Assembly (NCBI GenBank): GCA_001316125.1
Contig: BBCS01000015.1
Span: forward strand, 1 to 35,559
DNA length: 35,559 bases
Reading direction: 5' to 3'
Source: Vulcanisaeta distributa JCM 11213
Lineage (GTDB): Archaea; Thermoproteota; Thermoprotei; Thermoproteales; Thermocladiaceae
The translations under genes were made by a program, and so were the position numbers. Positions 1-35,559 of this stretch are shown piece after piece; the first letter of the stretch is position 1; every line of letters starts with the position of its first letter. The notes beneath the pieces were generated by a model. The model made no database searches. It was given only the letters and a program-made list of their open reading frames with translations, and was not told the origin of the DNA.

Positions 1-1
1 A

Positions 2-145
2 CCTCCACCACCGCCACCACCTCCACCGCCCAAGGTCACAAAGCCGCCAACAATAAGCACAACACTACTAATAGCCATAATAGTGATTATAGTTGTAATA
101 ATAATTGCTATAGGTGCATGGCTAGCTGTTAGAAGAAGAAGATAA
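2..145 (+). CDS. C-terminal end of a membrane-anchored peptide ABC transporter solute-binding protein (partial)
   Basis: The window opens inside a reading frame that gives a run of about ten prolines, a short KVTKPP linker, a strongly hydrophobic helix of about 25 residues rich in Ile and Val, and a final WLAVRRRR before the TAA. A proline-rich (in other archaea often Ser/Thr/Pro-rich) stalk followed by one membrane helix and a basic tail is the usual C-terminus of archaeal extracellular solute-binding proteins, anchoring the binding domain outside the cell. The Opp/Dpp permease genes start about 110 bp downstream on the same strand, which fits an oppA/dppA role. The ligand-binding domain lies outside the window, so the substrate class is inferred from neighbours only. 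Confidence 0.6.
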   Translation, partial: PPPPPPPPPPKVTKPPTISTTLLIAIIVIIVVIIIAIGAWLAVRRRR

Positions 146-224
146 TTAACTTTGTAAAAATCATCTCTTTAAAAATTTATTTTCTTATATTTATTCTAGA
201 TTGACCTAAATAACGTTAGTAAGG

Positions 225-232
225 CTTAAATA
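225..232 (+). promoter_or_regulatory. TATA-like box for the permease operon
   Basis: CTTAAATA lies about 28 nt before the ATG at 257, so transcription would begin almost at the start codon (leaderless). Position and composition only; no TSS data. Confidence 0.4.
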
Positions 233-256
233 ACGCGAGGATTCTCTTCAACTTCG

Positions 257-1372
257 ATGGGTCTTGCGAGGACGCTTGCCGTTAGAGCCGTGACACTGGT
301 TGTTTTGCTATTCATAGTGCTCTTTGTAATATCCTTCGCCCTGGCCGGGCCTGCGTCTAAAATACTTAAGGATGAGATATTTATGGAGACGAAGTCGATA
401 ATAATGAACTTAATGCTGCACGGTCACTATAACTCAACGCAGATACAGCAATTACAGCAGCAAATCATGACCGAGCTGGAGAACGCCTATGGACTTAATA
501 AACCACCTGCAATTAGGACCCTTTACATAATGTATAACATGATTGTCTTTAACTGGGGCTATTCATACTTCCCAAGTGAGTATGGTAATATTGGTGGTGG
601 TAAGGTCGTAGATATAATATTATCAGCACTTCCCGGAACAATACTTCTTGACACCTTTGGCATATTACTAAGCGCTTTCATTGGAATTGAGATAGGGCTT
701 AGGTCCGCCCTTAAGTACGGCTCTAAATCCGATAGAGCCGTTATGTATTATGCGGCATTGGCTAATGGCATACCACAGTGGTGGCTCGGTATTGTAATGC
801 TACTCATATTCTCATTTTACCTGGCACAGATACACTCACCAATTTACTTCCCAACGGGTGGTATAATAAGCCCTAAGTACTATGAGTTATGGTTAACAGA
901 CCCTGCTAAGGTATTTACAATACCGCAGGCAGTCCTTGACCTACTATGGCACTTCGCATTACCTTTAATAACGGTATTAATAATTAATATTGGCGGTTGG
1001 GCATACTTCGCGAGGACTGTTGTACTTAATATTTCTCAAGAGGATTTCGTGACCTTCGCAAAGATTAAGGGATTGCCTGAGAGCCACGTGGTTAATAGAT
1101 ACATACTTAGACCCGCTGCCCCCCCATCGATATTAACGAGCATATTCATAACAATACCATTCATAATATTCGGCGGCTTCCTAGTCACGGAGATGGTATT
1201 CCATTGGTGGGGGCTAGGTTATGTATACAATATTGCTATTGTTGGATCCCCCCCAACGCCTGATTTACCTGTCGTTGTTGCGCTAACATACGCATCAACA
1301 CTGCTTTACATCGTGATTATATTTATAATGGAGATCGTATATATAATACTCGACCCAAGAATTAGGGAGTGA
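257..1372 (+). CDS. Peptide ABC transporter permease, OppB/DppB type
   Basis: Inner-membrane subunit of an oligopeptide/dipeptide importer (BPD_transp_1 fold). At 371 aa it has the family layout: an N-terminal helix (about residues 8-30), an extracytoplasmic stretch, then about five helices. The cytoplasmic coupling (EAA-type) loop is visible as TVVLNISQEDFVTFAKIKGL followed by RYILRPA. The ending GSPPTPDLPVVVALTYAS resembles the conserved TPDxPV end of DppB. Two C7 runs (about 1109-1115 and 1248-1254) each give PP where one Pro is expected (AAPPS, SPPTP). The frame is intact. The next gene follows at once, so B and C are co-transcribed. Peptide versus sugar oligomer cannot be decided; some archaeal Opp systems import oligosaccharides. 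Confidence 0.88.
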   Translation: MGLARTLAVRAVTLVVLLFIVLFVISFALAGPASKILKDEIFMETKSIIMNLMLHGHYNSTQIQQLQQQIMTELENAYGLNKPPAIRTLYIMYNMIVFNWGYSYFPSEYGNIGGGKVVDIILSALPGTILLDTFGILLSAFIGIEIGLRSALKYGSKSDRAVMYYAALANGIPQWWLGIVMLLIFSFYLAQIHSPIYFPTGGIISPKYYELWLTDPAKVFTIPQAVLDLLWHFALPLITVLIINIGGWAYFARTVVLNISQEDFVTFAKIKGLPESHVVNRYILRPAAPPSILTSIFITIPFIIFGGFLVTEMVFHWWGLGYVYNIAIVGSPPTPDLPVVVALTYASTLLYIVIIFIMEIVYIILDPRIRE

Positions 1373-1382
1373 GGTGGTGGAT

Positions 1383-2808
1383 ATGGCGAGGAAACAGCGT
1401 GAGTTCAGGATCCTTGGAATGACGCCAAGCGAGATCGCTAAGGAGTTCTTCTCATCAGGTACAGGTAAGGTTGCGGCTGCATTATTCATAGTATTAGTGG
1501 TGGTATCAATATACGCATTAATAGTATTACCACCAAACTTCGCAAATGTATGGAATAACCCAAAGTATTGGGAGTTAAATCCGCAGTACGCACCACCTGC
1601 CTGGGTTGATTCAATAATAGGGCCTGTTTATTCACCGCAGATTTACGTAAACGATTATACATTTACCGTCCAACAACAGAGTGGGGGGGTTACTTACATT
1701 ACGGTGACATTTAGCGTTAATTATGAGTATGATAAACCATGGAATGAATTGTTTATTGTAATTAATAACCCAGCCATATATAGCATGTCTCAACCCCCCC
1801 CAGTGGTATCAATAACAGTTTATAGGCCGACGGGAGTAAGATAACACTCGGTCCACTACCCATTAATACGAAGGTAACAACGCTTGGTGTGGCTCCAGAA
1901 GTCATTAGTCAGGTTAACCTATTCTATAATGAGGAATATCACATTAGCAGTATTGTGCCCACCGGATCATCTGCGACACCATACCTATTTTATACAGTTG
2001 ATAATGGTAAGTTAATGCCGTTAAAGGGGGCCGTATAAGTTCGTTATGGTGTTTTACGTATTTTCGCAGATTCAACCGTGATTAATAGGAACGACCTTGA
2101 GATTGTGCTTCAGGGGGCAGATATATGGTTTAATGGGTACTGATAATGAGGGTCATGACCTATGGCTTGGCTTATTGGCAGGTTTCCCAATAGATCTCGC
2201 TGTTGGTCTTCTCTCTGCGTTGATAATAGTGGTTATAGCGGTAATAATTGGTATTGTGGCTGGATTCTATGGTGGGCTTGTTGATGAGACGTTAATGAGA
2301 CTTACGGACTTTGTAATATTACTACCAGCCTTTCCACTATTAATTGTCTTCTCAGTCTTATTTGGTTGGAGTATTTGGGATGCCGTAGTGTTCCTGGCGA
2401 TTGTGTCCTGGGGGGGCGCATCGGCTAGGATTATCAGGGCGATGATTATGCAGATAAGGAGTGCCCAATACATAGAGTCTGCGGTGATAGCAGGTGCCAG
2501 TAGGATGTGGATATTGAGAAACCACATACTGCCTCAGATAATTCCATACATACTTTATCTACTTGTCACGAATGTGCCTGGCGCAATACTGACATTGGCC
2601 TCTATAAACTTCCTAGGCTTAGCAGGTTCTGAGTACAACGTGGGGGGGTACACTTCTATATTACGCTGATGAGTTTGGCGCATTAACATCTGGTTATTGG
2701 TGGTGGGTCATACCACCGGGGCTTCTTGTTGCCTTCGTGGCGGTAGTGTTTATATTAACTGCCATGGCATCGGAGCCCGTGGTTAACCCAAGGCTTAGGT
2801 ATGGGTGA
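1383..2808 (+). CDS. Peptide ABC transporter permease, OppC/DppC type (frame broken)
   Basis: Second permease subunit. The first piece (1383-1844) holds the N-terminal helix; the middle is an archaeal-style extracytoplasmic insertion; the last piece (about 2100-2700) has the signature GTDNEGHDLWLGLLAGFPIDL, several helices and the coupling loop RSAQYIESAVIAGASRMWILRNHILPQ. The frame is lost at least five times: G4 to G3 near 1833, G4 to G5 near 2025-2029, one T missing near 2072, G4 to G5 near 2112-2116, and at the G7 near 2642. Restoring these gives one continuous protein ending in MASEPVVNPRLRYG. I prefer ATG 1383, behind GAGGTGGT, over GTG 1374. The stop overlaps the next ATG. Confidence 0.82.
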
Positions 2809-3795
2809 TGAGTATGGCGCTACTTGAGGTTAAGAATGCAAGGCTTTACTACACGACAACAAAAGGCGTCGTTAAAGCCGTTGATGACGTATCCTTCGAA
2901 TTAGATGAGGGGGGGGAGACTTTAGCCGTTGTTGGTGAGTCAGGCAGTGGTAAGTCCACCCTGGCTAAATTGCTTGTCAGGGTTTGGGAGAGGAATGTAT
3001 CGCTCGTTGATGGTGAGATTTACCTTGACGGTAAGGAGGTCCTTCACATACCTGAGGAGGAGTTTAGGAGGGAAATTAGGTGGAAGAAGATTGCATGGTA
3101 CCTCAAGCATCAATGAACGCCCTAAATCCAGTAATAAAGATTGGCGACCAAATGATTGAACCACTGCTGCTGCAGGGAACCAGTAAGGATGATGCATTAA
3201 AGATGGCAATGGACGCGCTCGAATCCGTTGGATTACCTAGAGATACTGTGAGTAGGTATCCACACCAACTTAGTGGTGGCATGAAGCAAAGGGTCATAAT
3301 AGCCATGGCCATAATGGCCCATCCTAAGGTAGTTATTCTCGATGAACCAACATCGGCCCTTGACGTAATAACCCAGGCAAACATAATGAACCTACTTAAG
3401 AAGCTTAAGTGGGAGTATGGACTTTCGTACATATTCATAACCCACGACCTAGCGCTGGCAAGCGAACTTGCGGACTCCGTAGCCATAATGTACGCTGGTA
3501 AGATGGTGGAAATTGGTGGTGCTGAGGATATTTACGGAAACCCAAGCCACCCATATACTCAGGCTTAATATCTAGTGTGCCAACGCTAAGGGTTGATAAG
3601 ACCTTATCATTCATACCCGGTGAGGTGCCGAGTTTAATAAATCCACCGCCTGGCTGTAGGTTCCACCCAAGATGCCCATTCTATAGGGATAGGGATTACC
3701 TAAAAGGTCTTTGCGATGCTAAGGAACCACCAATGGTAGAACTTGAAGGTAAAGCAAATAGGAGACACCTCGTGGCTTGTTGGTTATATAAATAA
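2808..3795 (+). CDS. Peptide ABC transporter ATP-binding protein, DppD/OppD type (frame broken)
   Basis: Cytoplasmic ATPase of the importer. Walker A GESGSGKST lies near residue 45, the signature is LSGGMKQR, Walker B is VVILDEPTSALD, the H-loop is FITHD, and the C-terminal Opp/Dpp domain has the cysteine cluster CRFHPRCPF...C. Three ORF pieces join if one A is restored near 3096 (IA-MVPQASMNALNP) and one G near 3564 (HPYTQGLISSVPTLR). A G8 at 2909-2916 reads DEGGE where DEGE is usual just before Walker A. The ATG lies in the overlap TGATG with the upstream stop, so it is translationally coupled. Length and domain order match DppD. Confidence 0.87.
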
Positions 3796-3835
3796 TTTAT
3801 ACGCAAATAAATTATAAATGCAAATATAGGTTAGA

Positions 3836-3844
3836 TTTTTAAAC
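3836..3844 (+). promoter_or_regulatory. TATA-like box before the DppF gene
   Basis: TTTTTAAAC lies about 30 nt before ATG 3870 in a 74-bp gap that follows the DppD stop, so the second ATPase may have its own transcript. Confidence 0.4.
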
Positions 3845-3869
3845 AATCCTTGAGTGGCATAATCGCTAT

Positions 3870-4883
3870 ATGCCTGAGATCTTTGAGGATGCGCCGTGGG
3901 TTAGGAAGGATAGTCTTGTTGTTGCCCATAGATTAAGGACATATTACACAATAAAACCTGGCTTATTCGCAAAGCCGAGGTATGTTAAGGCCGTTGATGA
4001 TATAAGCCTGAGCATTGATAGAGGCGATACATTGGCAGTTATTGGTGAATCAGGTAGTGGAAAGACAACGCTGGGTAGGACGCTCATTAGGCTTCTCGAA
4101 CCCATATCAGGAGAGATCTACTTTGATGGTGTTGATATAACGCATATGAAAGAAGAGGGGGGGTTGAAGAAGATAGGGTTTAGAAGGAGGGTTGGTATGG
4201 TGTTTCAGGATCCATACGCAAGCCTTAACCCGTTCCATAGCATTCACTTCATACTTGAGGAGCCACTCATGGTGCAGGGAGTACCGAGAGAGGAGAGGGA
4301 GGAGAGAATTTACAAAGCCCTTGAGGAGGTTAAGTTAACACCACCCGAGGACTTCATTAATAAATACCCGCATATGCTCAGCGGTGGGCAGAGACAAAGG
4401 GTTGCCATTGCAAGGGCTATTATAACGAATCCAGACTTCATAGTTGCTGATGAACCTGTATCAATGCTCGATGCCTCAATAAGGGTTGAGATACTAACAA
4501 TACTCAAGGATATTCAGCAAAGACATAAAATGGCGTTTATGTACATAACCCATGACATATCAACCGCGAAGTACTTCAGCGACTATATATTGATAATGTA
4601 TGCTGGTCAATTCGCTGAGTACGGTCCATTCAGGGATGTTGTTAAGAACCCACTTCACCCATATGCACAGTCACTTATTGAGGCAATACCAGACCCAGAC
4701 CCGAACAATAGACTGAGAGAGAGGAAGGTGGCTCCTGGCGAACCACCTAACTTGGTCAATCCGCCGTCTGGCTGTAGGTTCCACCCAAGATGCCCATACG
4801 CGATGGATATCTGTAAGAGGCAGGAACCACCAGTAGTTGAGGCAAGGCCTGGCGTGTTCGTTAAGTGCTGGTTATATCGTTAA
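3870..4883 (+). CDS. Peptide ABC transporter ATP-binding protein, DppF/OppF type
   Basis: Second ATPase, partner of the DppD-like subunit. The gene is intact at 337 aa, usual for DppF. In order: Walker A GESGSGKTT (about residue 59), Q-loop VFQDPYASLNP, signature LSGGQRQRVAIARA, Walker B FIVADEPVSMLD, H-loop YITHD, and the C-terminal domain with CRFHPRCPYAMDIC. One G7 (4157-4163) gives KEEGGLKK, an extra Gly in the region before the Q-loop. With the upstream genes it completes an A-B-C-D-F layout. Confidence 0.92.
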   Translation: MPEIFEDAPWVRKDSLVVAHRLRTYYTIKPGLFAKPRYVKAVDDISLSIDRGDTLAVIGESGSGKTTLGRTLIRLLEPISGEIYFDGVDITHMKEEGGLKKIGFRRRVGMVFQDPYASLNPFHSIHFILEEPLMVQGVPREEREERIYKALEEVKLTPPEDFINKYPHMLSGGQRQRVAIARAIITNPDFIVADEPVSMLDASIRVEILTILKDIQQRHKMAFMYITHDISTAKYFSDYILIMYAGQFAEYGPFRDVVKNPLHPYAQSLIEAIPDPDPNNRLRERKVAPGEPPNLVNPPSGCRFHPRCPYAMDICKRQEPPVVEARPGVFVKCWLYR

Positions 4884-4911
4884 GAAATAGCTAAATTAAT
4901 TAGGAACAAGG

Positions 4912-9035: not shown

Positions 9036-10301
9036 CTACGGCTCCATAAGTAACGATGCGAGCACAGTCTTTATATCACTAATGACGTCACTAATGAGTA
9101 CGTGCTCGTCAGGTGCATGGGCTGTTTCCTTAGACGTCATCCAAACAGCCACGGGTATACCCCCTAGCCCTAAGGTAGCGCGCGTATGTACCACCACCAA
9201 TACCAAGTAACTTCGGCTCCAGGCCTTAACAATCCTTATAGCCTTAGTCAGCCTCCTAACTATTTCACTGTCTGCGCTTGTTGGTTGCGCAGGATCTTCC
9301 CTACTGACGATGTCAATATCGACCTTACAACCATGGGTATTGCAGTAATTGTTTGCCGTGTCCTTAATTACCCTGAGAACATCATCAATGCCATACTTAG
9401 GCAGTATTCTACAGTCAATATAGAATATATGCTTACCGGGTATTGTATTCACATTACCAACATTTGGCTCCACCTTCGTTGGTTCGAAGGTTGACTTGGG
9501 TGGTATGAACAATGGGTCCTCATAATTAAATGTCTCGTGTAACTTCCTATCAATTTCAAGGGTTAACTCACTACCAAGTCTATACGCATTAAGTCCAAGC
9601 TCAGGAAGCGATGCATGTGCTTGCTTTCCATAAACAGTGACCTTCACCCAGAGTATTCCCTTCTCCGCAACCTCTATCATCGTGCCATCGGCATTACCAG
9701 CGTCAGGGACCAATACGAGGTCCCTATTACTTATCAGGCTTGGTTCCTTATTAATCACGTATTGAATACCGTACTTACTACCAACCTCCTCATCACTCGC
9801 CAATATTACTCCATAATTAACCGGTGGCGTTGCGCCAAGCTCCCTTAATACCTTACCGACTGTTAATCCCATGACAATTCCCTGCCCATTATCCTCAACA
9901 CCCCCTACCGTATACCACATCACCAATTACCGTGGCGTTAAAGGGTTCGTAATTCCATAATGACCTATCACCCTCGGGTACCGTGTCCATGTGAGCAATG
10001 ACCCAGTAGGTCCTTGATTCATTAAGTCCTTTTATTAAGGCTATTATGTTTGGTCTCGAGCCCTTACTAACCCTGCTGTCTGGGGGCTTCTATTACCCTA
10101 ACCTCATCAAAGTACCTCTTAACTACGCTCAATAGATAATTTGCCCTATCCCACTCACCATCACCACCATTCTCAGGCGCCATTGCCTTTATCGGTATAA
10201 AACCCCCCTATACAACTCGATTATGAAGTCCCTTTGGTTATCGACGTACTTAAGAACATTACCTAAGTCAACCTTTGACCTCACGGATAATGGGTCTCCA
10301 T
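9036..10301 (-). CDS. M20 family metallopeptidase/deacylase (ArgE/DapE/CPG2 type), frame broken
   Basis: Zinc amidohydrolase of the M20 family. The reconstruction begins near ATG 10301 with PLSVRSKVDLGNVLKYV, passes AHMDTVPEGD (metal-binding HxDxVP), GRGVEDNGQG (metal Asp), ILASDEEVGS (catalytic and metal Glu), VLVPDAGN, a dimerisation domain with GKQAHASLPELGLNA, then GGGT and ends ETAHAPDEHVLISDVISDI with the last metal His. At least six frame breaks: near 10292 (CCC, one short), 10203-10208 (C6), 10082-10086 (G5), 9901-9905 (C5), 9224 (one C short) and 9171-9175 (C5). Substrate (succinyl-diaminopimelate, acetyl-ornithine or a LysW-linked amino acid) cannot be told. The C-terminal break alters the GGGT motif region. 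Confidence 0.8.
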
Positions 10302-11597: not shown

Positions 11598-12931
11598 TTA
11601 GGTCTGTCTAAGGGCCTTAACTGAGTCCTTGATTTGCCTAAGCGTCTCCTCAACCACGTCATTGGTATGGCTTGAACTTGTGAACATGGCCTCGAATTGA
11701 CTGGGGGCTATGAAAATACCACGCTTAAGCAATTCCTCATGAAGCCTTAGGTATAGTTTTGTATCTGACTTACCTGCTGTTTCATGATCAATGACCTCAC
11801 CTTTAGTGAAGAACACCTGGAGCATTGTTGGTACCCAATTAACCACGTGATCGATACCAGACCTACTAAGTACGTCATTGATCCCCTCAGCTAACCTACG
11901 TGATGCGCTTATTGCGATGTCATACGCGTTCGTGGTCTCAAGAACCTCTATCGTGGCTAACCCAGCGATCATGGATATTGGGTGTCCATTAAATGTGCCA
12001 GCATTGAATACGGGACCTCTCGGTGATAGTAGGTCCATTATTTCGTCACGGGCACCCACGGCACCCACAGGAACCCACCACCAATTATCTTACCCAATGT
12101 GGTTATGTCAGCACTAACGCCGTAATACCTCTGGGCGCCACCTAAACCAAGCTATAGCCAGTGACAACTTCATCAAGTATTAATAGGGCTCCGTACTTAT
12201 CCGCAATCTCCCTAAGTCCTTTCAGGAAGCCCTCCCTAGGTGGTATCACTCCGTAGTTCGCCATTACTGGTTCGACGATTATCGCAGCCACGTCATTACC
12301 CTCACTCCTCATTACTCTCTCCACACTATCGAGATCGTTGTATCTAGCCACAAGCGTTAACTTAGCCACATCCTCAGGAACCCCCCCCGCCGATGATGGT
12401 GTGCCAAAATGCGCCGCGGCGCTGCCTGCCTTAACCAATACGTAATCAATGGCACCGTGATAACACCCCCCCTCGAATTTCAGGATCTTCCTACGCTTAG
12501 TATAGCCGCGGGCTAGCCTAATCGCCGTAGCCACAGCCTCGCCACCACTATTGACAAACCTAACCTTCTTAATACTTGGGAAGTGACTCACTATTTTCTT
12601 GGCTAGGGCAACCTCAATCTCCGTTGGCGCTCCATAAAGCCAGCCCCCTATTGATGTACTCCATTACCCGCTTAACCACGGGTTCAGGCGCATGTCCAAG
12701 GATCAATGGTCCATAACCAAGCACGTAATCTATTAACCGCTGACCATCAACCGTGAATATGTATGGGCCCTTACCCTCTCTCACGAAGAATGGGTATGGC
12801 CTGATCGCAGCCCTGACCGGACTATTGACGCCACCGACTAAAACCTTCATAGCTTCCTCATATAACTTGCTGGACTCACTCATCAATATTCCAGAAGTAG
12901 CCATATCATTAAGCTTTATCTTCATAGTCAT
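11598..12931 (-). CDS. hemL: Glutamate-1-semialdehyde 2,1-aminomutase (frame broken)
   Basis: PLP enzyme turning glutamate-1-semialdehyde into 5-aminolevulinate. Pieces cover the whole protein: GGVNSPVRA and [26 protein letters not shown] at the N-terminus; [55 protein letters not shown]; the PLP lysine in [12 protein letters not shown]; and [13 protein letters not shown]. Breaks lie at 12644-12648 (C5 for C4), about 12147 (one C short, restoring [16 protein letters not shown]) and about 12070 (one G short, GGGFPVGA). A C7 at 12466-12472 gives FEGGCYHG where the family has FEGCYHG, and a C8 near 12391-12398 gives SAGGVPE. The start may also be Met 12925. Confidence 0.88.
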
Positions 12932-12970: not shown

Positions 12971-13518
12971 ATGATTGAGAGAACCTGGTAATAATTAAGC
13001 CTGACGCAGTTAAAAGGGGGGGATTGATTGGGGGGGAGATAATTGCTAGGTTTGAGAGGGCGGGCTTGAGGATCGTTGCTATGAAAATGATTAGACTTAG
13101 TAAGGAGGAGGCCGCCAAGTTTTATCCAAGTGATGAGAATTGGCTTCGCTCAGTGGGTGGTAAGTCCTTGAAGTCCTACTCCGAGATTGGGAAGGATCCA
13201 AAGGTTGACCTGGGAACCGACGATCCAGTGGAGATTGGGAAGATAATTAGGGGTTGGCTTGCCGATTACCTATCAATGGGCCCAATAGTTGTAATGGTGC
13301 TGGAGGGTAATAGAGCGGTTGAGGTTGTTAGGAAGATCGTGGCTCAACAACGCCGTACTCATCACCGCCAGGTACGATTAGGGGGCGACTACTCCGTGGA
13401 TAGCCCAGACCTGGCAAATCTGGAGAAGAGGGCATTATTCAACCTAGTCCATGCCAGCGATAGCCCTAGGGAGGCGGAGAGGGAGATCAGGTTCTTCTTC
13501 CGTGAGGATGATTCGTAG
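12971..13518 (+). CDS. ndk: Nucleoside diphosphate kinase (frame broken)
   Basis: Transfers the gamma phosphate between nucleotides through a phosphohistidine. MIERT-LVIIKPDAVKRG is recovered from ATG 12971 by restoring one C at 12984. The active-site segment LVHASDSPREAEREIRFFF contains the catalytic His near residue 165. Two neighbouring G7 runs (13016-13022, 13030-13036) give KRGGLIGGE where the family reads KRGLxGE. Between about 13341 and 13385 a missing G and a surplus G compensate, so residues there read AQQRRTHHRQVRLG; in the other frame this is GSTTPYSSPPGTIRG, clearly the family sequence. It carries an archaeal insertion (YPSDENWLRSVGGKSLKSY), making it longer than the bacterial enzyme. 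Confidence 0.92.
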
Positions 13519-13579: not shown

Positions 13580-14644
13580 TCATAAACTTCTTATCTGTAT
13601 TACGGACTTTATGTCCTCATGGCCCCCCCAATTATATGCGTACTCGTACTCATCCAGCGTCACTTCCTTCGTTATTAACTTTCTAACCCAACCGCCGAAC
13701 TCGAACTTCGCCTTAACCAGGTCTGAGACTCCCATCTCGAAGGCCCTTATGCTTGCGTTGGTCGCACCGATTATCAGCTTATTTCTCCTCCAATCATCTA
13801 GTAACGGTCCGATATTAACATTTTTACTATCTAGGTAAATGCCCAGTAATACGGCTACACCATCAGCACCTAGATGCCTTAATGCCTCATATGCCGCATT
13901 AGTCGAGCCGGTAGCCTCAATGACTATGTCAAACTCGCCACTTATTTGATCGACATTAGTATTGACGTAGGTTGCGCCTATCTCCTTAACGAGCTTTGCC
14001 TTTAGGCTGTCGTAAGGTCTCGTAGCCGTTACGGTTACGTCAGTAAAGCCTCTAAGCCTCATGACCATTAATGCCAGCATGCCGATGGGCCCCCCCGCAC
14101 CCATTATTAAAACCCTCCTTGGACTCCAGGACTCAAATCTTGCCTTACCAAGCCTTATTGCCAAGTCGATGCCCTTCTCAACGATGCTTAGTGGCTCCGT
14201 GAGCACAGCGACATCTATGGCCTCCTTGGGAACCCTAACCAGGTACTGGGAGTCAGTCACGGCGAATTCGGCGGCAAATCCGTGTAAGTACCATATGCCG
14301 TGTTCTGCGTATGTACCCCCCCTTGGACAATAGTCTAACTCTGTTACTGGTAATGTGCACGTTGTTGGTCTTCTCACTGTTGGTACTACGATATCGCCAA
14401 CACCCACATTATCAACACCATCACCAAGCTCCACAACCTCAGCCACAGCCTCATGACCAAGAATAAGGTACTCTTCACCAGGTGGTGGTGCTCCATACTT
14501 ACCCTCAATAATATCCTTATCCGTACCACAAACACCAACCTCAATTGGACTTAGCAAAACCTGGCCGCGCTTAGGTGATGGCTTTGGCATATCCCTTAAT
14601 ACCAATGAGTCCTTTACCAATGGAACTACCGTAACAGCCTTCAT
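13580..14644 (-). CDS. Zinc-dependent MDR alcohol/sugar dehydrogenase, glucose 1-dehydrogenase type
   Basis: About 354 aa medium-chain dehydrogenase. VGVCGTDKDIIEGKYGAPPPGEEYLILGHEAVAEV holds catalytic zinc Cys and His-Glu, matching archaeal glucose/galactose dehydrogenases (CGTDxxI, GHExxG-like). VVPTVRRPTTCTLPVTELDYCPRGGTYAEHGIWYLHGFAAEFAV is the expected lobe region. The NAD(P) site reads MGAGGPIGML; the family GxGPIG has no such extra Gly, which comes from a C7 at 14090-14096. Two more runs give PRGGTY and NWGGHEDI, the latter in the usual WGHEDIKSVIQ end. Likely role is glucose oxidation in the Entner-Doudoroff branch; other polyols are possible. I choose ATG 14644 over TTG 14647. Confidence 0.8.
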   Translation of the reverse strand: MKAVTVVPLVKDSLVLRDMPKPSPKRGQVLLSPIEVGVCGTDKDIIEGKYGAPPPGEEYLILGHEAVAEVVELGDGVDNVGVGDIVVPTVRRPTTCTLPVTELDYCPRGGTYAEHGIWYLHGFAAEFAVTDSQYLVRVPKEAIDVAVLTEPLSIVEKGIDLAIRLGKARFESWSPRRVLIMGAGGPIGMLALMVMRLRGFTDVTVTATRPYDSLKAKLVKEIGATYVNTNVDQISGEFDIVIEATGSTNAAYEALRHLGADGVAVLLGIYLDSKNVNIGPLLDDWRRNKLIIGATNASIRAFEMGVSDLVKAKFEFGGWVRKLITKEVTLDEYEYAYNWGGHEDIKSVIQIRSL

Positions 14645-14815: not shown

Positions 14816-15572
14816 ATGTCACAGACATTAAGAGAATTAATCAACCAATTAATGAACAAGAGACTCATTATGATAGACCTATCGCATGAACTATACAATG
14901 GAATGCCCACCTACCCTGGCGATCCACCCTTTAACCATGAGTATGTCAAGATTGGGAAAAACTATGGCGAATCAACATTATCAAAAATATCCGCCGGACT
15001 CCATAGTGGTACGCACATAGACCTGCCACGTCACTTTGTACCGAGTGGCTTAACTGCGGAGTCACTACCATTAACGGACTTCATAGCCTACGGCGTAATA
15101 CTAGACCTGAGCTATAAGAAGCATGGTGAAGCCATAACGGCCAATGACCTGAGGAGATTCGATGGTAGAATACAGCGCAATTACGCAGTAATGCTGTACA
15201 CGGGCTTCTCAAAGACCTGGGGTACAGAGGAATTCTTATATAACTGGCCGTACCTCGACAGGTCAGGGGGCGGATTACCTAGTCACTAAGGGAATTAAGG
15301 TTGTGGGTATTGAGGCCCTTAGCATAGCTGGTTGGCCGGGTAAGGAGGGTTATCCATACCCACCCAGGGTTTCTAGGGATGATGTGGTGTATGTTCACTA
15401 TAAATTATTATCAAGCGGAGTTTACATAATAGAGGGCGTTACCAACCTAGACGTTGCATTAAATACATGTAAGGATGGTGAGGGGGGGTTATTCATGTTC
15501 ATGCCACTTAAGATTAGGGGGGGTGCTGAGGGTTCGCCACTACGATTGATAATGCTATGTGAACCAAGGTAG
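14816..15572 (+). CDS. Cyclase/kynurenine formamidase-like metal-dependent hydrolase (frame broken once)
   Basis: Cyclase-family (PF04199) hydrolase of about 250 aa. The metal motif HSGTHIDLPRHF (HxGTHxDxPxHF) is clear, preceded by IDLSHELYNGMPTYPGDPP, the usual start. The second piece has VVGIEALSIAGWPG and then VYIIEGVTNLDVAL and FMFMPLKIRG-AEGSPLRLI, both diagnostic. The two join if the G5 near 15267-15271 is four (DRSGADYLVTKGIKVVGIEAL). G7 runs give DGEGGLF and IRGGAEG; the family has a single Gly in the latter. Substrate unknown: kynurenine formamide and isatin-like amides are family examples. Confidence 0.82.
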
Positions 15573-18513: not shown

Positions 18514-19759
18514 ATGTCCTCGAGGGTAAAAATACCTGAGGATGGAGAACCAATTGTTGTTCAGGGTGGTGTATGGAATGTACCTAACAAACCAATAATA
18601 CTTTACATCGAGGGTGATGGTATAGGGCCTGAGATAACCAATGTAGCCATTAAGGTGATTAATAAGGCCGTTGAGAAGGCCTATGGAAGCTCAAGGGAGA
18701 TCAAGTGGGTTAAGGTCTATGCGGGTGAGGAGGCTGAGAAGGTTTATGGTAATAGGTTCCCTGAGGAGACGATAAACCTCATTACTAGGTATAGGGTTGT
18801 CCTTAAGGGTCCATTGGAGACACCAATTGGTGGTGGTTGGAGGTCGATAAACGTTGCCATTAGGATGCTCCTGGACGCCTATGCCAATGTGAGGCCCGTC
18901 AAGTACATGCCAGGTCTTGAATCACCGCTTAAGCACCCTGAGAGGGTTGACATGGTTATTATTAGGGAGAACACGGACGACCTGTACAGAGGCATTGAGT
19001 GGAGTTGGGATAGCCCGGAGGCTGCTAAGTTGAGGAAGTTCCTTAAGGAGGAGTTGAAGATAGAGCTTGAGGATGACACTGGAATAGGCATAAAGCCAAT
19101 TAGTAAGTATAAGACGCAGAGGGTTGCGAGGTTTGCCTTTAAATTCGCAATTGAAAATAAGAGAAGGTCAGTAACGATAATGCATAAGGGTAACATAATG
19201 AAGTACACGGAGGGTGCCTTCAGGGAGTGGGCTTACGAGGTAGCCTTAAGGAGTTCAGGGATTACATAATTACTGAGGAGGAGGTGAATAAGCTCTATGG
19301 TGGCAAGGTACCGCCTGGCAAGATACTTGTCAATGATAGGATAGCCGATAATATGTTCCAGCAGATAATCACGAGACCCGAGAACTACGATGTAATACTC
19401 GCACCAAACCTAAACGGTGATTACATAAGCGACGCCGCTGGAGCCCTCATAGGTGACATAGGGGGTACTTGGTGGTGCTAATGTTGGTGATACGGGAGGT
19501 ATGTTCGAGCAGTACACGGAACAGCGCCTAAGTACGCTGGTAAGAATGTAGCCAACCCAACGGGCATAATTAGGGCCGGCGAATTAATGCTTAGGTTCAT
19601 GGGTTGGAGGGAGGCTGCTGACCTAATTGATAGAGCAATAACTGAGGCCATAAACCAGAAGAAGGTCACGCAGGACTAGCTAGGTATATGGGTGTTCAGC
19701 CATTAGGCACTAAGGAGTTTGGTGATGCATTAATTGAAATAATTGACCAATTAAAGTAA
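18514..19759 (+). CDS. icd: Isocitrate dehydrogenase, NADP type (frame broken)
   Basis: TCA-cycle enzyme forming 2-oxoglutarate. [14 protein letters not shown] opens the beta-decarboxylating dehydrogenase fold; [53 protein letters not shown] contains the isocitrate-binding SxNxxxR and Arg residues; the Lys of [23 protein letters not shown] and the Asp in [11 protein letters not shown] and NLNGDYISD follow. The tail [23 protein letters not shown] segment is recovered as [34 protein letters not shown]. Breaks at about 19244 (one C short), 19461-19465 (G5), about 19509 (one G short) and 19676 (one C short). This is the prokaryotic homodimeric type, about 415 aa. Confidence 0.92.
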
Positions 19760-24782: not shown

Positions 24783-25741
24783 GTGACCAATATAAAATCA
24801 CTTAGGGGGGGTAGGGACTTCATAACCCTCATGGATTACACAACGGATGAGATAAAATACCTACTAAGTTTATCCAGAGATCTCAAGTCCCGGTATTACC
24901 AGGGAGAGCGGTACAATGACACGCTGAGGGGGGGCAGGACATTACTTATGATTTTCGAGAAGCCAAGTACCAGGACTAGGGTTAGTCTCGATGTGGCGGC
25001 GACGCAATTAGGAATGCACGTAATCTACTCAAACCCGCAGGAGCTTCAATTGGGTCGTGGTGAGACCATAGCCGACACGGCAAGGGTCGTGGATAGGTTT
25101 GTGGATGCCATTGCGGCTAGGGTGTATAGGCATGAATCGTTAATAGAAATGGCTAAATACGCCGTGGCACCCGTGATAAATGCCTTAAGTGATAAGGAAC
25201 ATCCATTACAGGTACTGGCCGATGCATTAACACTGTGGGAGGTTAAGGGGGGGCGGCTTGATGGCATTAAGTTAGCGTTTGTTGGTGATGGTGACAATAA
25301 CATGGCACACTCATTAATGATAATAGGCGCAAGCTTGGCTGGGAGGTTAGGATAATATCCCCCCCGAAGAAGTATTGGCCAAGTAAATTCGCTGAATTGC
25401 TTACTGAGGATTCAAGGAGGACCGGCGCTAATATAGTAATCAGTGATAATATTGAGGATGTTAGGGGGGGTGTGGATGCCGTGTACACCGATGTTTGGGT
25501 TAGCATGGGTATGGAGGCTGAGGCCGAAGAGAGAAGGAAGGTGTTTAGGCCATACCAGGTTAATGCTGAATTAATGAGGAGGGCGGGTCCTCAAGCAGTA
25601 TTCATGCACTGCTTACCTGCCCACAGGGGGGGTGAGGAAGTCACTGATGATGTGATTGATGGTCCACAAAGCGTTGTTTGGGATCAGGCGGAGAATAGGC
25701 TGCATACGGCTAAGGCGGTGCTAATATCATTATTAGTATGA
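24783..25741 (+). CDS. argF: Ornithine carbamoyltransferase (frame broken once)
   Basis: Joins carbamoyl phosphate and ornithine to citrulline. [15 protein letters not shown] is the carbamoyl-phosphate STRTR motif; [17 protein letters not shown] holds the HPxQ-type residues; [19 protein letters not shown] is the HCLP motif. The frame breaks at about 25343-25346 (GGG for GGGG), restored as [31 protein letters not shown]. Five G7 runs and one C7 each add one residue to conserved motifs: [42 protein letters not shown] 24783 is the start and fits the TATA box. This gene is the clearest example of the +3 tract pattern. Confidence 0.92.
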
Positions 25742-29418: not shown

Positions 29419-29508
29419 TGGTGCGGGGGGGGTGGGATTTGAACCCACGCAGGCCTTCGCCAGCGGATCTTGAGTCCGCCCCCTTTGACCTGGCTCGGGC
29501 ACCCCCGC
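29419..29508 (-). tRNA. tRNA-Leu (anticodon CAA), CCA encoded
   Basis: The minus strand starts GCGGGGG-TG, then a D arm around CCCGAGCCAGGTCAAAGGGGG, anticodon stem GCGGA/TCCGC with loop CTCAAGA (anticodon CAA), a long variable arm (GGC-GAAG-GCC), T stem GTGGG-TTCAAAT-CCCAC, and a 3' end GC-A-CCA. The long variable arm and anticodon fit leucine. The acceptor needs CCCCCGC after the T stem, so a run of 6 C following the T-stem A; the sequence has 8, leaving two unpaired Cs between T stem and acceptor. No intron is seen, though many Thermoproteales tRNAs carry one. The archaeal genome encodes the CCA. Confidence 0.88.
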
Positions 29509-30071: not shown

Positions 30072-30947
30072 TTACTTATTTCTCGATAATGGCCTTAGGA
30101 TTCTCCTTGGGTTGTCATCCACGATCTTCTTCATAACCTCCCTCGGTATTGGTATGTTTAGGAATTCCCTTAGGTTAGCCTTTATGTCATAAACCCCCCC
30201 AGGGCCTGGGTAATCACTACCGTAAATTGCCTTATCGCTTATCTCCGTGAGCCTTGGCAGGTACTCCAGGACCCTTCTCGGTGGTATGCTCGAGAGGTCA
30301 GCAATCATGTTCGGCCTTATCCTGATTAATTGAAACGCCGTGGGTACCCAGTTAGGCCTGCCCACGTGGGACATTATTATTGTCAGCCTTGGGAAGTCCA
30401 CCGCAACGTCATCCACAAATATCGGGTCACCATATTTATTCCTAGCCCTTGAGAAGGCGCTTGTCCCGGTGTGTATGTACACCGGTAGTCCGTGGTCCTC
30501 TGCAAATTGATAAACAAGCTCAAGCTGTCTTAAACCACCCTCCTCCGGCCTATATGCATTTGGCTTGAGCCACATGTGCGGTGGGTGTATCTTAATCGCG
30601 CTAATGCCGGCCTCGTACTGCCTCTCAAGCCAGTACCTGGTCTCCTCGATGGATAGTTCATTGGCCTCCACACCACCTATAACTGCAAACCTATCGGCAT
30701 AATCCTTGACGGCATCCATAACCCTTATTGCGTAATCCTCCTTCGCAATACCCAACTTCCTAGATGGGTAGGCCATGACACCCACGTAATCAATATCCGC
30801 ATCATCAAGTATCCTAACAACATCAGCAACGCTCATGGTCAGTACCTCACGTGGTGCGCCCCCCCATTCCCTAAGGGCGAAGTTCATTAATTCTTCCGTG
30901 ACCGTCTCCTTAAACACTATGTGGGTATGTGCATCGATATAACCCAT
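30072..30947 (-). CDS. Amidohydrolase-2 family metal-dependent hydrolase
   Basis: 291 aa TIM-barrel hydrolase of the ACMSD/amidohydrolase-2 group. IDAHTHI carries the HxH metal pair; ISAIKIHPP, GLPVYIHTGT and IIMSHVGRPNW give further metal or acid-base His; AIYGSDYPGPG holds the terminal Asp. The protein is intact. C7 runs add a Gly in EWGGAPRE and GPGGVYD. Reaction is unknown: family members decarboxylate or hydrolyse ring or lactone substrates. It diverges from an aldolase-type gene; a TATA-like box at 30971-30980 is 28 nt upstream of ATG 30947. Confidence 0.82.
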   Translation of the reverse strand: MGYIDAHTHIVFKETVTEELMNFALREWGGAPREVLTMSVADVVRILDDADIDYVGVMAYPSRKLGIAKEDYAIRVMDAVKDYADRFAVIGGVEANELSIEETRYWLERQYEAGISAIKIHPPHMWLKPNAYRPEEGGLRQLELVYQFAEDHGLPVYIHTGTSAFSRARNKYGDPIFVDDVAVDFPRLTIIMSHVGRPNWVPTAFQLIRIRPNMIADLSSIPPRRVLEYLPRLTEISDKAIYGSDYPGPGGVYDIKANLREFLNIPIPREVMKKIVDDNPRRILRPLSRNK

Positions 30948-31000
30948 TAAATTATGGTGCGTATACTACTGTTTATACGTTTTGCAGCGCATAGAGTATG

Positions 31001-31009
31001 TTTTTTATG
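31001..31009 (+). promoter_or_regulatory. TATA-like box, class II aldolase gene
   Basis: TTTTTTATG centred about 28 nt before ATG 31033; supports that start over 30982. Confidence 0.4.
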
Positions 31010-31032
31010 CCCATCACATAACGCCCCCTTGT

Positions 31033-31608
31033 ATGAATGAAGCATCCCTGAGAAGGATTATTGTTGAAATATTTAGGTTAGCATACGCGAGAAGGCTTGT
31101 AGACCTACTTGGCGGTAATGCAAGTGCTAGGTTAGGTGGTGATGAGGTATTAATCACGCCGACCTCAATGCCAAAGACGCTTATAAAACCACAGAGTATT
31201 GTTAAGATTAGGTTTGATGGGACTGTCGTGTCTGGCGGAAACCCCAGTAGTGAGTGGAGGATGCATGTAAGTATTTACAGGGTTAGGGATGATGTGAAAT
31301 TCGTACTTCACACGCACCCGCCCAACATACTGGCTTTGATTAGGGCAGGTCTTAAAGTTGATTTATCGTTAAGTGAAGCTATCTCATACGTTGGTGAAAT
31401 CGCAGAAGTTCCCTACCTAAAACCGGGAAGCGCTGAGCTTGCTGATGCCGTCGCGAGGGCAGTGTCTAAGAAAAATATTACTGCCGTGATTCTAAGAAAC
31501 CATGGATTAGTCACGGTGGGTTCAACGCCATATGAGGCACTCAATAGGGCTGAGGTCCTTGAAAACCTCGCATATATAACATTACTTTCAAATTGCTTCA
31601 CTAGGTAG
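31033..31608 (+). CDS. Class II aldolase/adducin-family protein (fuculose-phosphate aldolase type)
   Basis: 191 aa from ATG 31033. The phosphate-site segment GGNASARLGGDEVLITPTSMPK, the zinc pair HTHPPN and the later NHGLVTVG (third His) are all present, with SSEWRMHVSIYR holding the catalytic Glu/His neighbourhood. Such proteins cleave sugar phosphates (fuculose- or ribulose-phosphate) to dihydroxyacetone phosphate or glycolaldehyde phosphate and an aldehyde; archaeal members also act on fructose or on methylthioribulose phosphate. No partner kinase is adjacent, so the substrate is open. The frame also opens at 30982, but homology and the TATA box favour 31033. Confidence 0.82.
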   Translation: MNEASLRRIIVEIFRLAYARRLVDLLGGNASARLGGDEVLITPTSMPKTLIKPQSIVKIRFDGTVVSGGNPSSEWRMHVSIYRVRDDVKFVLHTHPPNILALIRAGLKVDLSLSEAISYVGEIAEVPYLKPGSAELADAVARAVSKKNITAVILRNHGLVTVGSTPYEALNRAEVLENLAYITLLSNCFTR

Positions 31609-31613
31609 TTAAT

Positions 31614-32324
31614 TCATAGAGTTACTAATACCTCAATTTCATCACCATCCCTAAGGCCAAGCTTATCCCTTAACTTATAAGGCGATATGACCTCTATGGT
31701 GTCAGGCCCGTGATGCGTCCTCTCAATTAGCAGGACGGCGCCGGGTAACCCCCCCTGAATCGTCGCCCTAAAGCACTTAACACCCCCCCCGTAAGTCCTA
31801 ACACCATTACTAAAGCCCTCTATGTAAATGCCAGGCAGTGCATCTAGGTAAAGTCTGTACTTAACGTACTCCGGCTTAAGCCTAATATTGAGGGTTCCAG
31901 GGTATGGCTTAAACCCAAGCTTCTCAACAAACTGCTTAACATAACCATCAAGGCTCATGTAGAATCCACCCTCACCAAGCCCGGAGACCACATGACCGAC
32001 AAGCCTAATCACCAACCTTTCATCGAGGTAATGCCTAATTGTGTCGATTACAAATTGAAGAGCCTCGGAAGCCCTTTGCGTGAACTTAATAGCCAACTGA
32101 CCACTAACGGTGGATTTAATTATCAATCCCTCCTCAGCAAGCCTATTTATGATCTTGAATACATTCTGTGGTGTTGTGCCGATGTCATTGGCGAGCCTCG
32201 TTAGATTTATTGCTGCGTAATCTTTATCGTTAATTCCGTACTTAACGAGAAGTATTAGGTATGGTATTCTTCGGAGGAGCTTATAATCAATTCCCAATGA
32301 AGCGCGGCTCACGGGATTTCCCAT
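31614..32324 (-). CDS. ribK: CTP-dependent riboflavin kinase with N-terminal winged helix
   Basis: 236 aa. Residues about 40-100 form a wHTH (TRLANDIGTTPQNVFKIINRLAEEGLIIKS), followed by the archaeal RibK (DUF120) domain: RLVGHVVSGLGEGGFYMSL, LGFKPYPGTLNIRL, GIYIEGFSNGVRTYGGGVKCFRATI and LLIERTHHGPDTIEVISPYKLRDKLGLRDGDEIEV. These match the CTP-using cradle-loop barrel that makes FMN. C-runs of 7 and 8 near 31749 and 31783 give IQGGLPG and TYGGGVK, each one Gly more than the family. The attached HTH suggests self-regulation by flavin level, as seen in related archaeal proteins. Confidence 0.9.
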   Translation of the reverse strand: MGNPVSRASLGIDYKLLRRIPYLILLVKYGINDKDYAAINLTRLANDIGTTPQNVFKIINRLAEEGLIIKSTVSGQLAIKFTQRASEALQFVIDTIRHYLDERLVIRLVGHVVSGLGEGGFYMSLDGYVKQFVEKLGFKPYPGTLNIRLKPEYVKYRLYLDALPGIYIEGFSNGVRTYGGGVKCFRATIQGGLPGAVLLIERTHHGPDTIEVISPYKLRDKLGLRDGDEIEVLVTL

Positions 32325-32415
32325 ACACTTCGTATTGGCGTAAAGAACCCATTTATTAACGCTTCCTTCTAAATATGATGAGATGAATCATTGAGAATAA
32401 AGGTGATGGACATTT

Positions 32416-32452
32416 CCGTAATCAGTGTGAGACAGTCTCGTCATTTTTACGG
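32416..32452. repeat. Nested inverted repeat in the ribK-wHTH gap
   Basis: CCGTAA (32416-32421) and TTACGG (32447-32452) are perfect inverted copies; inside them GAGAC and GTCTC (32429-32433, 32435-32439) form a second, tight palindrome. On the minus strand ATGACGA (32438-32444) and CTGA (32422-32425) lie exactly 12 nt apart. Possible roles: operator, terminator of the wHTH gene, or a minimal C/D-like RNA. Confidence 0.45.
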
Positions 32453-32506
32453 ATTCTGCCCGCCTCATCACCCACTCCCCCCCTATTTTATAAGGAATTA
32501 AAAAGC

Positions 32507-32806
32507 CTAAGTCTCCCCCCCTGTCGACTCCTCGCCCTCCATGACCTCCTCCTTAACCTCCTGTTCGAGTGCCTTAAGGGCCTCCTGGGCATTATCCGCA
32601 GCCTTCCAATAGGCCACCTTACCCCCCCTCTTAATCTCCCTAATCAGCCCATCCCTCTGAAGGAGCTTTAATGCGTAAAAGACCTGGCTGTGGCTTAGGT
32701 TTGTCTTCTTGACAATCTCGTTGGTGGGTAACTCACCCTCCTTAATTAATAGTTCTAGTATCTCCTTTTTCCTTTCCACGATTCGAACAGTCTGTTTGCG
32801 AGGCAT
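32507..32806 (-). CDS. Winged helix-turn-helix DNA-binding protein
   Basis: 99 aa. VERKKEILELLIKEGELPTNEIVKKTNLSHSQVFYALKLLQRDGLIREIKRGGKVAYWK is a standard archaeal wHTH: three helices with recognition helix SHSQVFYALKLLQRDGLI and a wing. The C-terminus is acidic (EQEVKEEVMEGEESTGGET). A transcription regulator of unknown target. It sits directly after the HMG-CoA synthase gene on the same strand but has its own TATA-like box at 32825-32837, 25 nt before ATG 32806. C7 runs give KRGGK and TGGET. Confidence 0.75.
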   Translation of the reverse strand: MPRKQTVRIVERKKEILELLIKEGELPTNEIVKKTNLSHSQVFYALKLLQRDGLIREIKRGGKVAYWKAADNAQEALKALEQEVKEEVMEGEESTGGET

Positions 32807-32860
32807 TGCGTTGTTTTTTAACTGTTTATTTTTAAAGATTAAGAGGCCGACAAATCGATA

Positions 32861-33924
32861 TTACTGAATCACCTTAATCAAGTTCCTGAATCTCAGGTAA
32901 AGTGCATAATCTATGTATGCCTTATTCTCAAGGTAATAACTAACAGTCCTCGCCCTACCCACCTTCTCGGGTAATAAGTCCGTGGTGATTAGGCTGAAGG
33001 CATTCGACCCAGCACCACTACCGAAGGAGACCATTAATATCCTAGAACCCGGCCTTGCATTCTCGAGTATGTTCGCGAGCCCTATCAATACTGCGCCATT
33101 GTACGTATTACCAATCCTATCAACCACGATACCAAGCTTTACCTTATCAAGAGGTATACCAAGCATTTGAGCAGCCCTCACTGGGAATCTGGCATTTGGT
33201 TGGTGGAATACGGCATAGTCAAAGTCGCTTGGCTTAAGTCCCGTAGCTCCATAAGCGCCTTCGCCGCATTCACAATATGCCTAAAATACGCAGGCTCGCC
33301 CGTGAATGACTCACCATGTACTGCATATGGTATGCCATCCCTACGCCAGAAGTCAGGTGTGTCTGAGTTATATGCATAAATGTGCTCAATCTCAGCTGCA
33401 ACGCCGTCGGACCCTATTATGTAAGCTGCCGCACCACCAGATACCGTGTAGTCGAGGTGATCCCCTGGCTCTCCATGACTATGGTCAACACCAACAGCAA
33501 GCCCATACTTAATTAGGCCGCTCTTAACAAGGCCCGTTGCGTTAACTATTGCATCCGAGCCAGCTTTACATGCAAATTCCATGTCAACAGCGAACGACTG
33601 CTTCCTCATTCCAAGAGCCTCAATTAGTATTGAGGCTATGGGCTTAACGGCATACGGCTTTGACTCAGTACCAACAAATACCGAACCCAACTCCTTAGGA
33701 TCAATACCCGCCCTCCTCAATGCATTTCTTGAGGCCTCCACCGCCATCGTGACCGCATCCTCGTCAGGACCACCAACACTCCTCTCCTCAACCCAGTAAA
33801 GATCCTTAATCCTAAGCGGGTCATCACCCCCCCATACCCTAGCGATTTCCTTTGTGCTTATTCTGAACCTTGGTATGTAGACACCCCCCCACCCAACAAT
33901 GCCTACCTTACCCACAAAACGCAT
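32861..33924 (-). CDS. Hydroxymethylglutaryl-CoA synthase, archaeal type (frame broken once)
   Basis: Condenses acetyl-CoA and acetoacetyl-CoA in the mevalonate route to archaeal lipids. Thiolase-fold marks: [53 protein letters not shown] with the catalytic Cys, [28 protein letters not shown], and [17 protein letters not shown] with the catalytic His, then [13 protein letters not shown]. The two ORFs join at about 33240, where GGG stands for GGGG ([20 protein letters not shown]). C7 runs near 33826 and 33884 give VWGGDD and GWGGVY. The usual partner thiolase and DUF35 protein are not in the window. Confidence 0.9.
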
Positions 33925-34010
33925 TATTTTATACCCTATTTAACTTTTAGCGTTGTTGAATTCGACAGTAAACGCATGGTATTGGCTTAGTGAGTTAGCA
34001 AGGTGAAGAT

Positions 34011-34020
34011 AATTATATAA
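34011..34020 (+). promoter_or_regulatory. TATA-like box, cdc48
   Basis: AATTATATAA lies about 38 nt before ATG 34054, so a short leader of about 12 nt carrying GAGG (34043-34046) is likely; an exception to the leaderless pattern here. Confidence 0.4.
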
Positions 34021-34053
34021 GCTGAGTTGAGGATTAAGCAGTGAGGATTAGTC

Positions 34054-35559
34054 ATGGGTTCTAATAATGAGGTTAGTCTTAGGGTTGCGGAGGCTAGGAC
34101 GAGGGATGTTGGTAGGCTCATTGTTAGGATTCCCCCCCAGCGGTACATGAGGTGCTTGGTATTGAGCCTGGGGGAGTATGTTGAGATAGTTGGTAATAAG
34201 CGCAGTGCCTATGCTCAGGTATGGCCTGCCTACACTGATGATGAGGATAAGGACTACATAAGGATGGATGGCGTATTGAGGCAGAATGCCGGTGTTAGTA
34301 TTGGTGATGTTGTTAAGGTTAGGAAGGCTAACCTAAGGTCTGCGCAAAGGGTCACAATAGCGCCTGTTGGCGAGTACATTAGGGTTGACCCTGATTATCT
34401 TAAGAGGGCTTACTTACTTGGCAAGCCTGTTTGGAAGGGCTCGATCATAGAGATACCGTATTACACGGGCTCCATTAGGTTCATGGTAACAAGCGTGACG
34501 CCAGGGCCGGCATCATACGTGGGTATAGACACGGAGGTCCAGGTCAGGGAGGAGCCGTTAGGGAGATGGAGCTAACAATGCCGAGGGTTACCTGGGAGGA
34601 CATTGGTGATTTGGAGGAGGCGAAGAGGAAGATTAGGGAATTGATAGAGCTACCGTTGAGGCATCCTGAGATATTTAAGCACCTTGGTATTGAGCCTCCT
34701 AAGGGCGTTCTCTTAATTGGCCCACCCGGTACTGGTAAAACTCTCCTAGCAAAGGCCGTGGCTTCGGAGCTAACGCCTACTTCATATCGATTAACGGCCC
34801 TGAAATAATGAGTAAATACTACGGTGAGTCTGAGGCTAAGTTGAGGGAGATTTTTGAGGAGGCTAAGAAGAATGCTCCTGCCATTATCTTTATTGATGAG
34901 ATTGATGCGATAGCACCAAAGAGGGAAGAAGTAACTGGAGAAGTTGAGAAGCGTGTTGTTGCTCAGCTCCTTACATTAATGGATGGTTTGCAGGAAAGAG
35001 GCCAAGTAATCGTAATAGGAGCAACCAACAGACCAGAAGCCGTAGACCCAGCACTAAGAAGACCAGGAAGATTCGACAGAGAGATATACATAAGCATGCC
35101 CGATAAGAATGCGAGGAAGGAGATACTCCAGGTACACACGAGGAATGTGCCGCTGTGCACCGAGGATGATGTTAAGGAGAAGATATGTGACCCAGGCGAC
35201 GTTGTGAATATCGATGAGATTGCTGAGATGACTCACGGCTATACGGGGGCTGACCTAGCGGCGTTGGTTAAGGAGGCCGCGATGATAAGACTTAGGGAGG
35301 CTATAGACGTTACTAAGGAGATTGATCTGGATCAACCACAGATACCGCCTGAGCAGTTGGCTAGGATTAGGATTAGGATGAGGGACTTCCTCGAGGCTAT
35401 GAAGTACATACAACCAACGGTACTTAGGGAGGTCATTGTTGAGGTTCCTGAGGTTCACTGGGATGATATTGGTGGTTATGAGAATGTGAAGCAGGAGCTT
35501 AAGGAGATGGTTGAGTGGCCACTTAGGTATCCCAGGTACTTTGAGGAGCTTGGCGTTGA
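34054..35559 (+). CDS. Cdc48/VAT-type AAA ATPase (partial, frame broken)
   Basis: Hexameric unfoldase that feeds the proteasome. The N domain (residues 1-170) has [22 protein letters not shown] and the double-psi barrel region. D1 contains [59 protein letters not shown] (Walker A), [17 protein letters not shown] (Walker B), [24 protein letters not shown] (sensor 1 and Arg fingers). D2 starts at [22 protein letters not shown] and runs off the window. Breaks: about 34559 (one G short, [14 protein letters not shown]) and about 34769 (one G short, [24 protein letters not shown]). A C7 at 34131-34137 gives RIPPQR. Confidence 0.93.

What the first reader, a model, noticed from the sequence alone, without database searches (positions are those of the whole stretch)
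1..35559. Uniform +3 expansion of G4/C4 runs: seven-base G/C runs at conserved Gly and Pro
I count about 50-60 runs of exactly seven G or C (several of eight) across genes on both strands. Compared with remembered family motifs, each adds one residue at a place with a single Gly or Pro: [26 protein letters not shown], HemL FEGGCYHG, cyclase IRGGAEG, a dehydrogenase GAGGPIG, HMG-CoA synthase GWGGVY. Lengths do not spread from 5 to 10 as random slippage would give; nearly all are original plus three. Other G4/C4/G5 runs (for example near 555, 2719, 10612, 11883, 22948, 31242, 35245) stay normal. Either a systematic sequencing or consensus error, or a real expansion process acting in codon units. 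I lean to error, as conserved catalytic motifs would not accept so many inserts.
Basis: partly seen in the sequence, partly recalled or inferred. Interest (0 to 1): 0.75.

Follow-up and report, generated by a model that had tools for sequence, protein, structure and literature searches.

The report
Seven-base G/C runs: sequencing artefact
The many seven-letter G or C runs in this archaeal DNA are almost certainly four-letter runs miscounted during sequencing or assembly: closely related strains lack them, and other records with the same fault carry it inside conserved ribosomal RNA.

Summary
In detail: 54 G/C runs of exactly 7 and 8 of exactly 8 in 35.6 kb, against 24 of length 4. The window is Vulcanisaeta. 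Its nearest whole genome, 94.5% identical, has the length published for the V. distributa type strain. The change is not codon-wise: 15 of 22 five-base runs are +1 and both six-base runs +2. In that comparison runs of 3 never grow and A/T runs hardly change. The same excess occurs in 3 of 81 whole genomes of the class, not in other members of their genera. In those three it also hits rRNA loci, where lengths saturate (4→7, 5→7/8, 6→8, 7→8) and a 16S segment recalled as universal is altered. This is a systematic G/C homopolymer length error of a sequencing or assembly pipeline. Ion Torrent is likely, since a draft with a neighbouring accession prefix is recorded as Ion Torrent PGM, but not proven.

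The parts
1..35559 (.). Whole window affected. Exact-7 runs start at G: 1683,2410,2642,4157,5398,10921,13016,13030,15482,15517,16689,20739,22250,24805,24928,25247,25464,25626,28099; C: 1119,1248,5718,6971,7271,7445,7565,7752,7944,12466,13623,14090,14316,15876,16002,16165,16517,17629,22872,23046,24231,24267,24654,25359,27966,28468,30194,30859,31749,32477,32515,32622,33827,33884,34132. Exact-8 runs start at G: 2909,14771,20908,29425; C: 1794,5642,12381,31783
   Evidence: positions; length change against G006
13016..13036 (+).
25626..25632 (+).
12466..12472 (-).
14090..14096 (-).
15517..15523 (+).
33884..33890 (-).
29423..29508 (-). tRNA-Leu gene; the run at 29425-29432 is 8 long (6 in G006) and, read on the minus strand, falls at the 3' end of the gene, in the acceptor side by my reading, while the five-base run at 29502 near the 5' end is unchanged. 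Anticodon called CAA here, GAG in two relatives
   Evidence: stem assignment read by eye
10203..10208 (.). Example of an out-of-frame length change: C6 against C4 in G006 (+2)
9901..9905 (.). Example of an out-of-frame length change: C5 against C4 in G006 (+1)

Best explanation
The long runs are a systematic homopolymer length error in the sequence record, not DNA of the organism. Shown here: in this window and in three other assemblies of the same class, G or C runs of length 4 or more in relatives are mostly written longer, most often as 7 or 8 (4→7; 5→7 or 8; 6→8; 7→8), while about a third of the 4-base runs stay 4. Shorter runs and A/T runs change little. Adding three to a 4-base run happens to keep the reading frame and adds one Gly or Pro, which gives the look of codon units. 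Inferred: the cause is the run-length estimate of a flow-based platform (most likely Ion Torrent PGM), a calibration step that acts on runs of 4 or more, or the assembler's consensus.
For: Against G006, 94.5% identical, 37 of 63 cleanly aligned G/C4 runs read 7, 16 read 4, 8 read 5 and 2 read 6; of 527 runs of 3, 510 stay 3, 17 are shorter and none grows; 58 of 60 A/T4 runs stay 4. G006 has 2 matches to the exact-7 pattern in 2.4 Mb. JCM 11216 (G002) against JCM 16159 (G003), 94% identical over 36 kb, shows the same: 45 of 86 G/C4 runs read 7, while G003 has 3 exact-7 matches in 2.2 Mb. The four comparisons among G001, G003 and G006 give no 7 from 4. rRNA loci of G002 (16S), G007 (23S) and G060 (16S) have 4→7, 5→7/8, 6→8, 7→8. 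The 16S segment AAGGGGATTAGATACCCC reads G7 and C5 in G002 and C7 in G060. Site states do not agree well between affected sequences, and flanking bases have no clear effect. The V. souniana draft BBBK01 is stated to be Ion Torrent PGM (PMC9872577, whole text read); affected JCM 11216 is NZ_BBBI01.
Against: The platform of the window, G002, G007 and G060 was not seen in any record; only that of BBBK01 was. Bragg et al. (PMC3623719, abstract and passages) report that PGM typically over-calls short and under-calls long homopolymers, the opposite for long runs. JCM 14467 (G001) and JCM 16159 (G003), also JCM strains, lack the excess. The affected sequences lie in one class (two genera), and none of 250 Thermoplasmata genomes stood out, so the error was not shown in unrelated organisms. 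A few short runs do grow in more distant comparisons (window against G003: one 3→6, one 2→7) and in G002 against G003 (one 3→7, one 2→7). The window itself holds no rRNA gene that I tested. No raw reads were available.
Confidence: 0.95

Rival explanations
1. The same artefact, but made by the assembler or consensus software rather than by base calling: reads hold mixed lengths and the consensus settles on 7 or 8. (A narrower form of the best explanation, so the odds overlap.)
For: A two-humped outcome (4 or 7, fewer 5-6) in all four affected sources; 7 makes up 58-69% of the runs of 4 or 7, with no clear dependence on flanking bases.
Against: Limited to G/C and to length 4 or more, which points to signal or calibration; cannot be told apart without reads.
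Confidence: 0.3
2. A real mutation process in these strains lengthens G4/C4 by one codon, tolerated in proteins.
For: +3 keeps the frame in 55 of 62 long runs; the affected sequences are all from one class, three of the four sources from Vulcanisaeta.
Against: Relatives 94-95% identical lack it, so the events would have to arise separately, by the thousand, in several tips; in other affected genomes it hits rRNA, and in the window a tRNA end; +1 and +2 changes occur at the same runs in coding sequence; all six conserved motifs checked are altered.
Confidence: 0.01
3. The extra Gly/Pro residues are native to Vulcanisaeta.
For: None, beyond a few runs shared with JCM 11216, itself affected.
Against: All six named motifs have a single Gly in G006; 55 of 62 long runs are three bases shorter there.
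Confidence: 0.005

Closest known systems
Ion Torrent PGM homopolymer (flow-call) errors, as in Bragg et al. 2013 (PMC3623719; abstract and passages seen)
   Same: Run-length miscounts limited to homopolymers and systematic across a genome; the platform is documented for a draft of this genus (PMC9872577).
   Different: The paper says PGM over-calls short and under-calls long runs, with error-prone flow positions tending to be A or T; here G/C runs of 4 or more are over-called, most often by three, and A/T runs are hardly changed.
Phase-variable or slippage-expanded homopolymer tracts (recalled, no call)
   Same: Lengthened G or C tracts.
   Different: Those, as recalled, spread over many lengths and sit at a few loci; here one or two lengths dominate genome-wide, including rRNA.

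Membership tests
Systematic homopolymer sequencing/assembly artefact | Absent from closely related genomes (94-95% identical) | tested here: met
Systematic homopolymer sequencing/assembly artefact | Present regardless of coding function, including rRNA/tRNA genes | tested here: met
   rRNA loci of the three other affected assemblies; one tRNA in the window
Systematic homopolymer sequencing/assembly artefact | Raw reads or accurate resequencing show the shorter runs | not testable with these tools
   no reads held
Ion Torrent PGM error | Record of platform for this sequence | tested here: inconclusive
   Only BBBK01 documented. One search found no paper holding the BBBI accession strings; the one paper is the type strain paper, seen as a listing
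Ion Torrent PGM error | Published direction of error (under-calling of long runs) | tested here: not met
   against passages of PMC3623719
Ion Torrent PGM error | Same pattern in unrelated organisms from the same platform or batch | tested here: inconclusive
   one further genus of the class affected; 0 of 250 Thermoplasmata stand out, platforms unknown
Real codon-unit expansion | Length changes in genes restricted to multiples of three, and no preference for three in RNA genes | tested here: not met
   10 of 62 coding G/C4 sites are +1 or +2; 4→7 is the commonest change in rRNA loci too

The most novel reading that the evidence does not exclude
The tracts are real DNA: a few strains of Vulcanisaeta and of a related genus acquired genome-wide G4→G7 inserts, including in rRNA genes, and neutralise them at the RNA level by slippage or processing.
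Probability: 0.01. Interest if true: 0.95.

Novelty: not a real feature. Interest (0 to 1): 0.15.

Why it matters
It says nothing about the biology of Vulcanisaeta. It matters for databases: three of the whole genomes held as one-per-species representatives carry 16,618 matches to the exact-7 pattern (4,803 + 3,857 + 7,958). By inference most are wrong, giving proteins with spurious Gly/Pro residues and rRNA genes that profile searches split or miss. A histogram of G/C run lengths (a bump at 7, few at 4) is a quick test for such records.

Tried and rejected
Native residues: rejected by G006. Codon-unit mutation: rejected by rRNA loci of other affected assemblies, by +1/+2 changes and by closely related unaffected strains. 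Local sequence context as the reason why some G4 runs stay 4: no clear effect (the smallest single-position p was 0.052, for the base before the run, C giving the lowest share). Inherited expansions: states agree poorly between affected sequences (17, 18 and 13 sites). Gene fragmentation as special evidence: dropped, because the draft JCM 16159, with a normal run histogram, is about as fragmented as the window (0.32 and 0.34 of bases in open frames of 250 codons or more, against 0.75 in G006; at 150 codons 0.76, 0.67 and 0.92). Spread beyond the class: not found in 250 Thermoplasmata genomes (highest count 1,021; their run-length histograms were not examined). Literature on a 4→7 over-call: searches were seen as listings, plus passages of one paper; nothing in what I saw describes it. 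One search (Ion Torrent, JCM, Thermoproteales, draft genome) gave no paper, and the listing named no draft that I could tie to these records. A homopolymer recalibration step that acts only on runs of 4 or more is recalled from memory of Torrent software and untested.

Full report
Observation. The window has 54 G/C runs of exactly seven and 8 of exactly eight, but only 24 of four, 22 of five and 2 of six. Simulated sequences with the same short-range composition average 2.3-4.8 runs of seven and 151-191 of four. A/T runs show no such bump.

Source. A genome scan with one window protein (isocitrate dehydrogenase by recall; 18514-19269) found Vulcanisaeta genomes as best relatives, with long collinear alignments. 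The nearest whole genome, G006, is one contig of 2,374,137 bases. That is the length given for the V. distributa type strain IC-017T (PMC3035369, start of abstract in the listings); the identification by length is an inference. Two alignments cover window 1-33954 with 1,867 substitutions in 33,732 aligned bases. No whole genome is held for the window itself.

Site-by-site comparison. Counting only runs whose flanking bases match, G/C runs of 4 in G006 read in the window as 4 (16), 5 (8), 6 (2) or 7 (37). Runs of 5 read as 5 (4), 7 (1) or 8 (3), and one run of 6 reads 8 (pooled). Of 527 runs of 3, 510 are unchanged, 17 are shorter and none is longer. A/T runs of 4 are unchanged in 58 of 60. Without the flank condition, 55 of the 62 runs of 7-8 are +3; the rest are one +1, four +2, one +4 and one unaligned. 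Fifteen of 22 five-base runs are +1 and both six-base runs +2.

Distribution. Of 12 Vulcanisaeta genomes, two have thousands of exact-7 matches: G002 (the genome of V. distributa JCM 11216, contigs NZ_BBBI01; 4,803) and G007 (unnamed; 3,857). The other ten have 0-5. Over the 81 held genomes of the class, only one more stands out, G060 with 7,958; the next has 310. G060 belongs to another genus, whose two other held members have 43 and 119. Stretches of about 20 kb (three of each affected genome) show the same kind of histogram as the window. JCM 11216 and JCM 16159 are 94% identical over 36 kb, yet G/C4 runs of JCM 16159 read 7 in JCM 11216 in 45 of 86 cases. The comparisons among G001, G003 and G006 give no 7 from 4. 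A few shorter runs do grow in other comparisons (one 3→6 and one 2→7 in window against G003; one 3→7 and one 2→7 in G002 against G003). In 250 Thermoplasmata genomes the highest count is 1,021, and none approaches the 1,800-4,200 per Mb of the affected three.

Not codon units. The rRNA loci (genes plus flanks) of the three affected assemblies show the same change: G060 4→7 in 10 of 18 against G006; G002 in 14 of 30 against G003; G007 in 22 of 44 against G006. In the same comparisons runs of 5 become 7 or 8 in 26 of 33, runs of 6 become 8 in 4 of 6, and both runs of 7 become 8. Control pairs of unaffected genomes stay at 4 in 78 of 81, 100 of 102 and 75 of 78. So the length function saturates near 7-8 rather than adding three. 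The 16S match is 1,580 bases long in G060 against 1,508-1,513 in five unaffected genomes; 16S is split in G002 and not found in G007; 23S is split in G007 and not found in G002 or G060. The 16S segment AAGGGGATTAGATACCCC (recalled as universal) reads G7 and C5 in G002 and C7 in G060. In the window, the only tRNA gene found has two extra bases in a run at its 3' end. In coding sequence 10 of 62 G/C4 sites are +1 or +2.

Not clearly inherited, not clearly context-driven. At sites with G/C4 in G006, expansion states agree poorly between affected sequences (window and G002: 10 of 17 agree; window and G007: 6 of 18; G002 and G007: 6 of 13). Among runs of 4 or 7, the share of 7 is 58-69% in all four sources, with no clear dependence on flanking bases.

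Cause. The V. souniana genome paper (PMC9872577, whole text read) states that the draft BBBK01 was made by Ion Torrent PGM. JCM 11216 has the neighbouring accession prefix BBBI. This makes an Ion Torrent batch the leading source, but no record of the platform of the window or of the three genomes was seen. Bragg et al. (PMC3623719, abstract and passages) describe PGM errors in the opposite direction for long runs, so if PGM is the source, a calibration or consensus step is the likely culprit. That last step is inference.

Verdict. Interest lies only in data quality.

Noticed in passing
window 29423-29508: ARAGORN calls this tRNA-Leu with anticodon CAA, whereas two relatives at the matching place give GAG and the JCM 11216 stretch gives no tRNA; the differing call is probably a by-product of the extra bases.
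   Followed up: partly
window 19244 and other places: G/C runs of 1-3 are shorter in the window than in G006 at 33 places, and some fall where open frames end, such as that of the query protein near 19244. Part of this may be real divergence: control pairs of drafts also show such differences.
   Followed up: partly
L119-L120 (JCM 16159, G003): This draft has a normal run-length histogram yet is about as fragmented in long open frames as the window, so it may carry a different kind of indel error.
   Followed up: no
L127-L129, L138 (G060): A genome of another genus of the same class has the strongest excess, 7,958 exact-7 matches in 1.9 Mb, and a 16S match about 70 bases longer than in five unaffected relatives.
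   Followed up: yes
window 29999; L115 (G006 syntenic region): The alignment to G006 breaks at about 29999, where G006 holds about 1.4 kb more.
   Followed up: no
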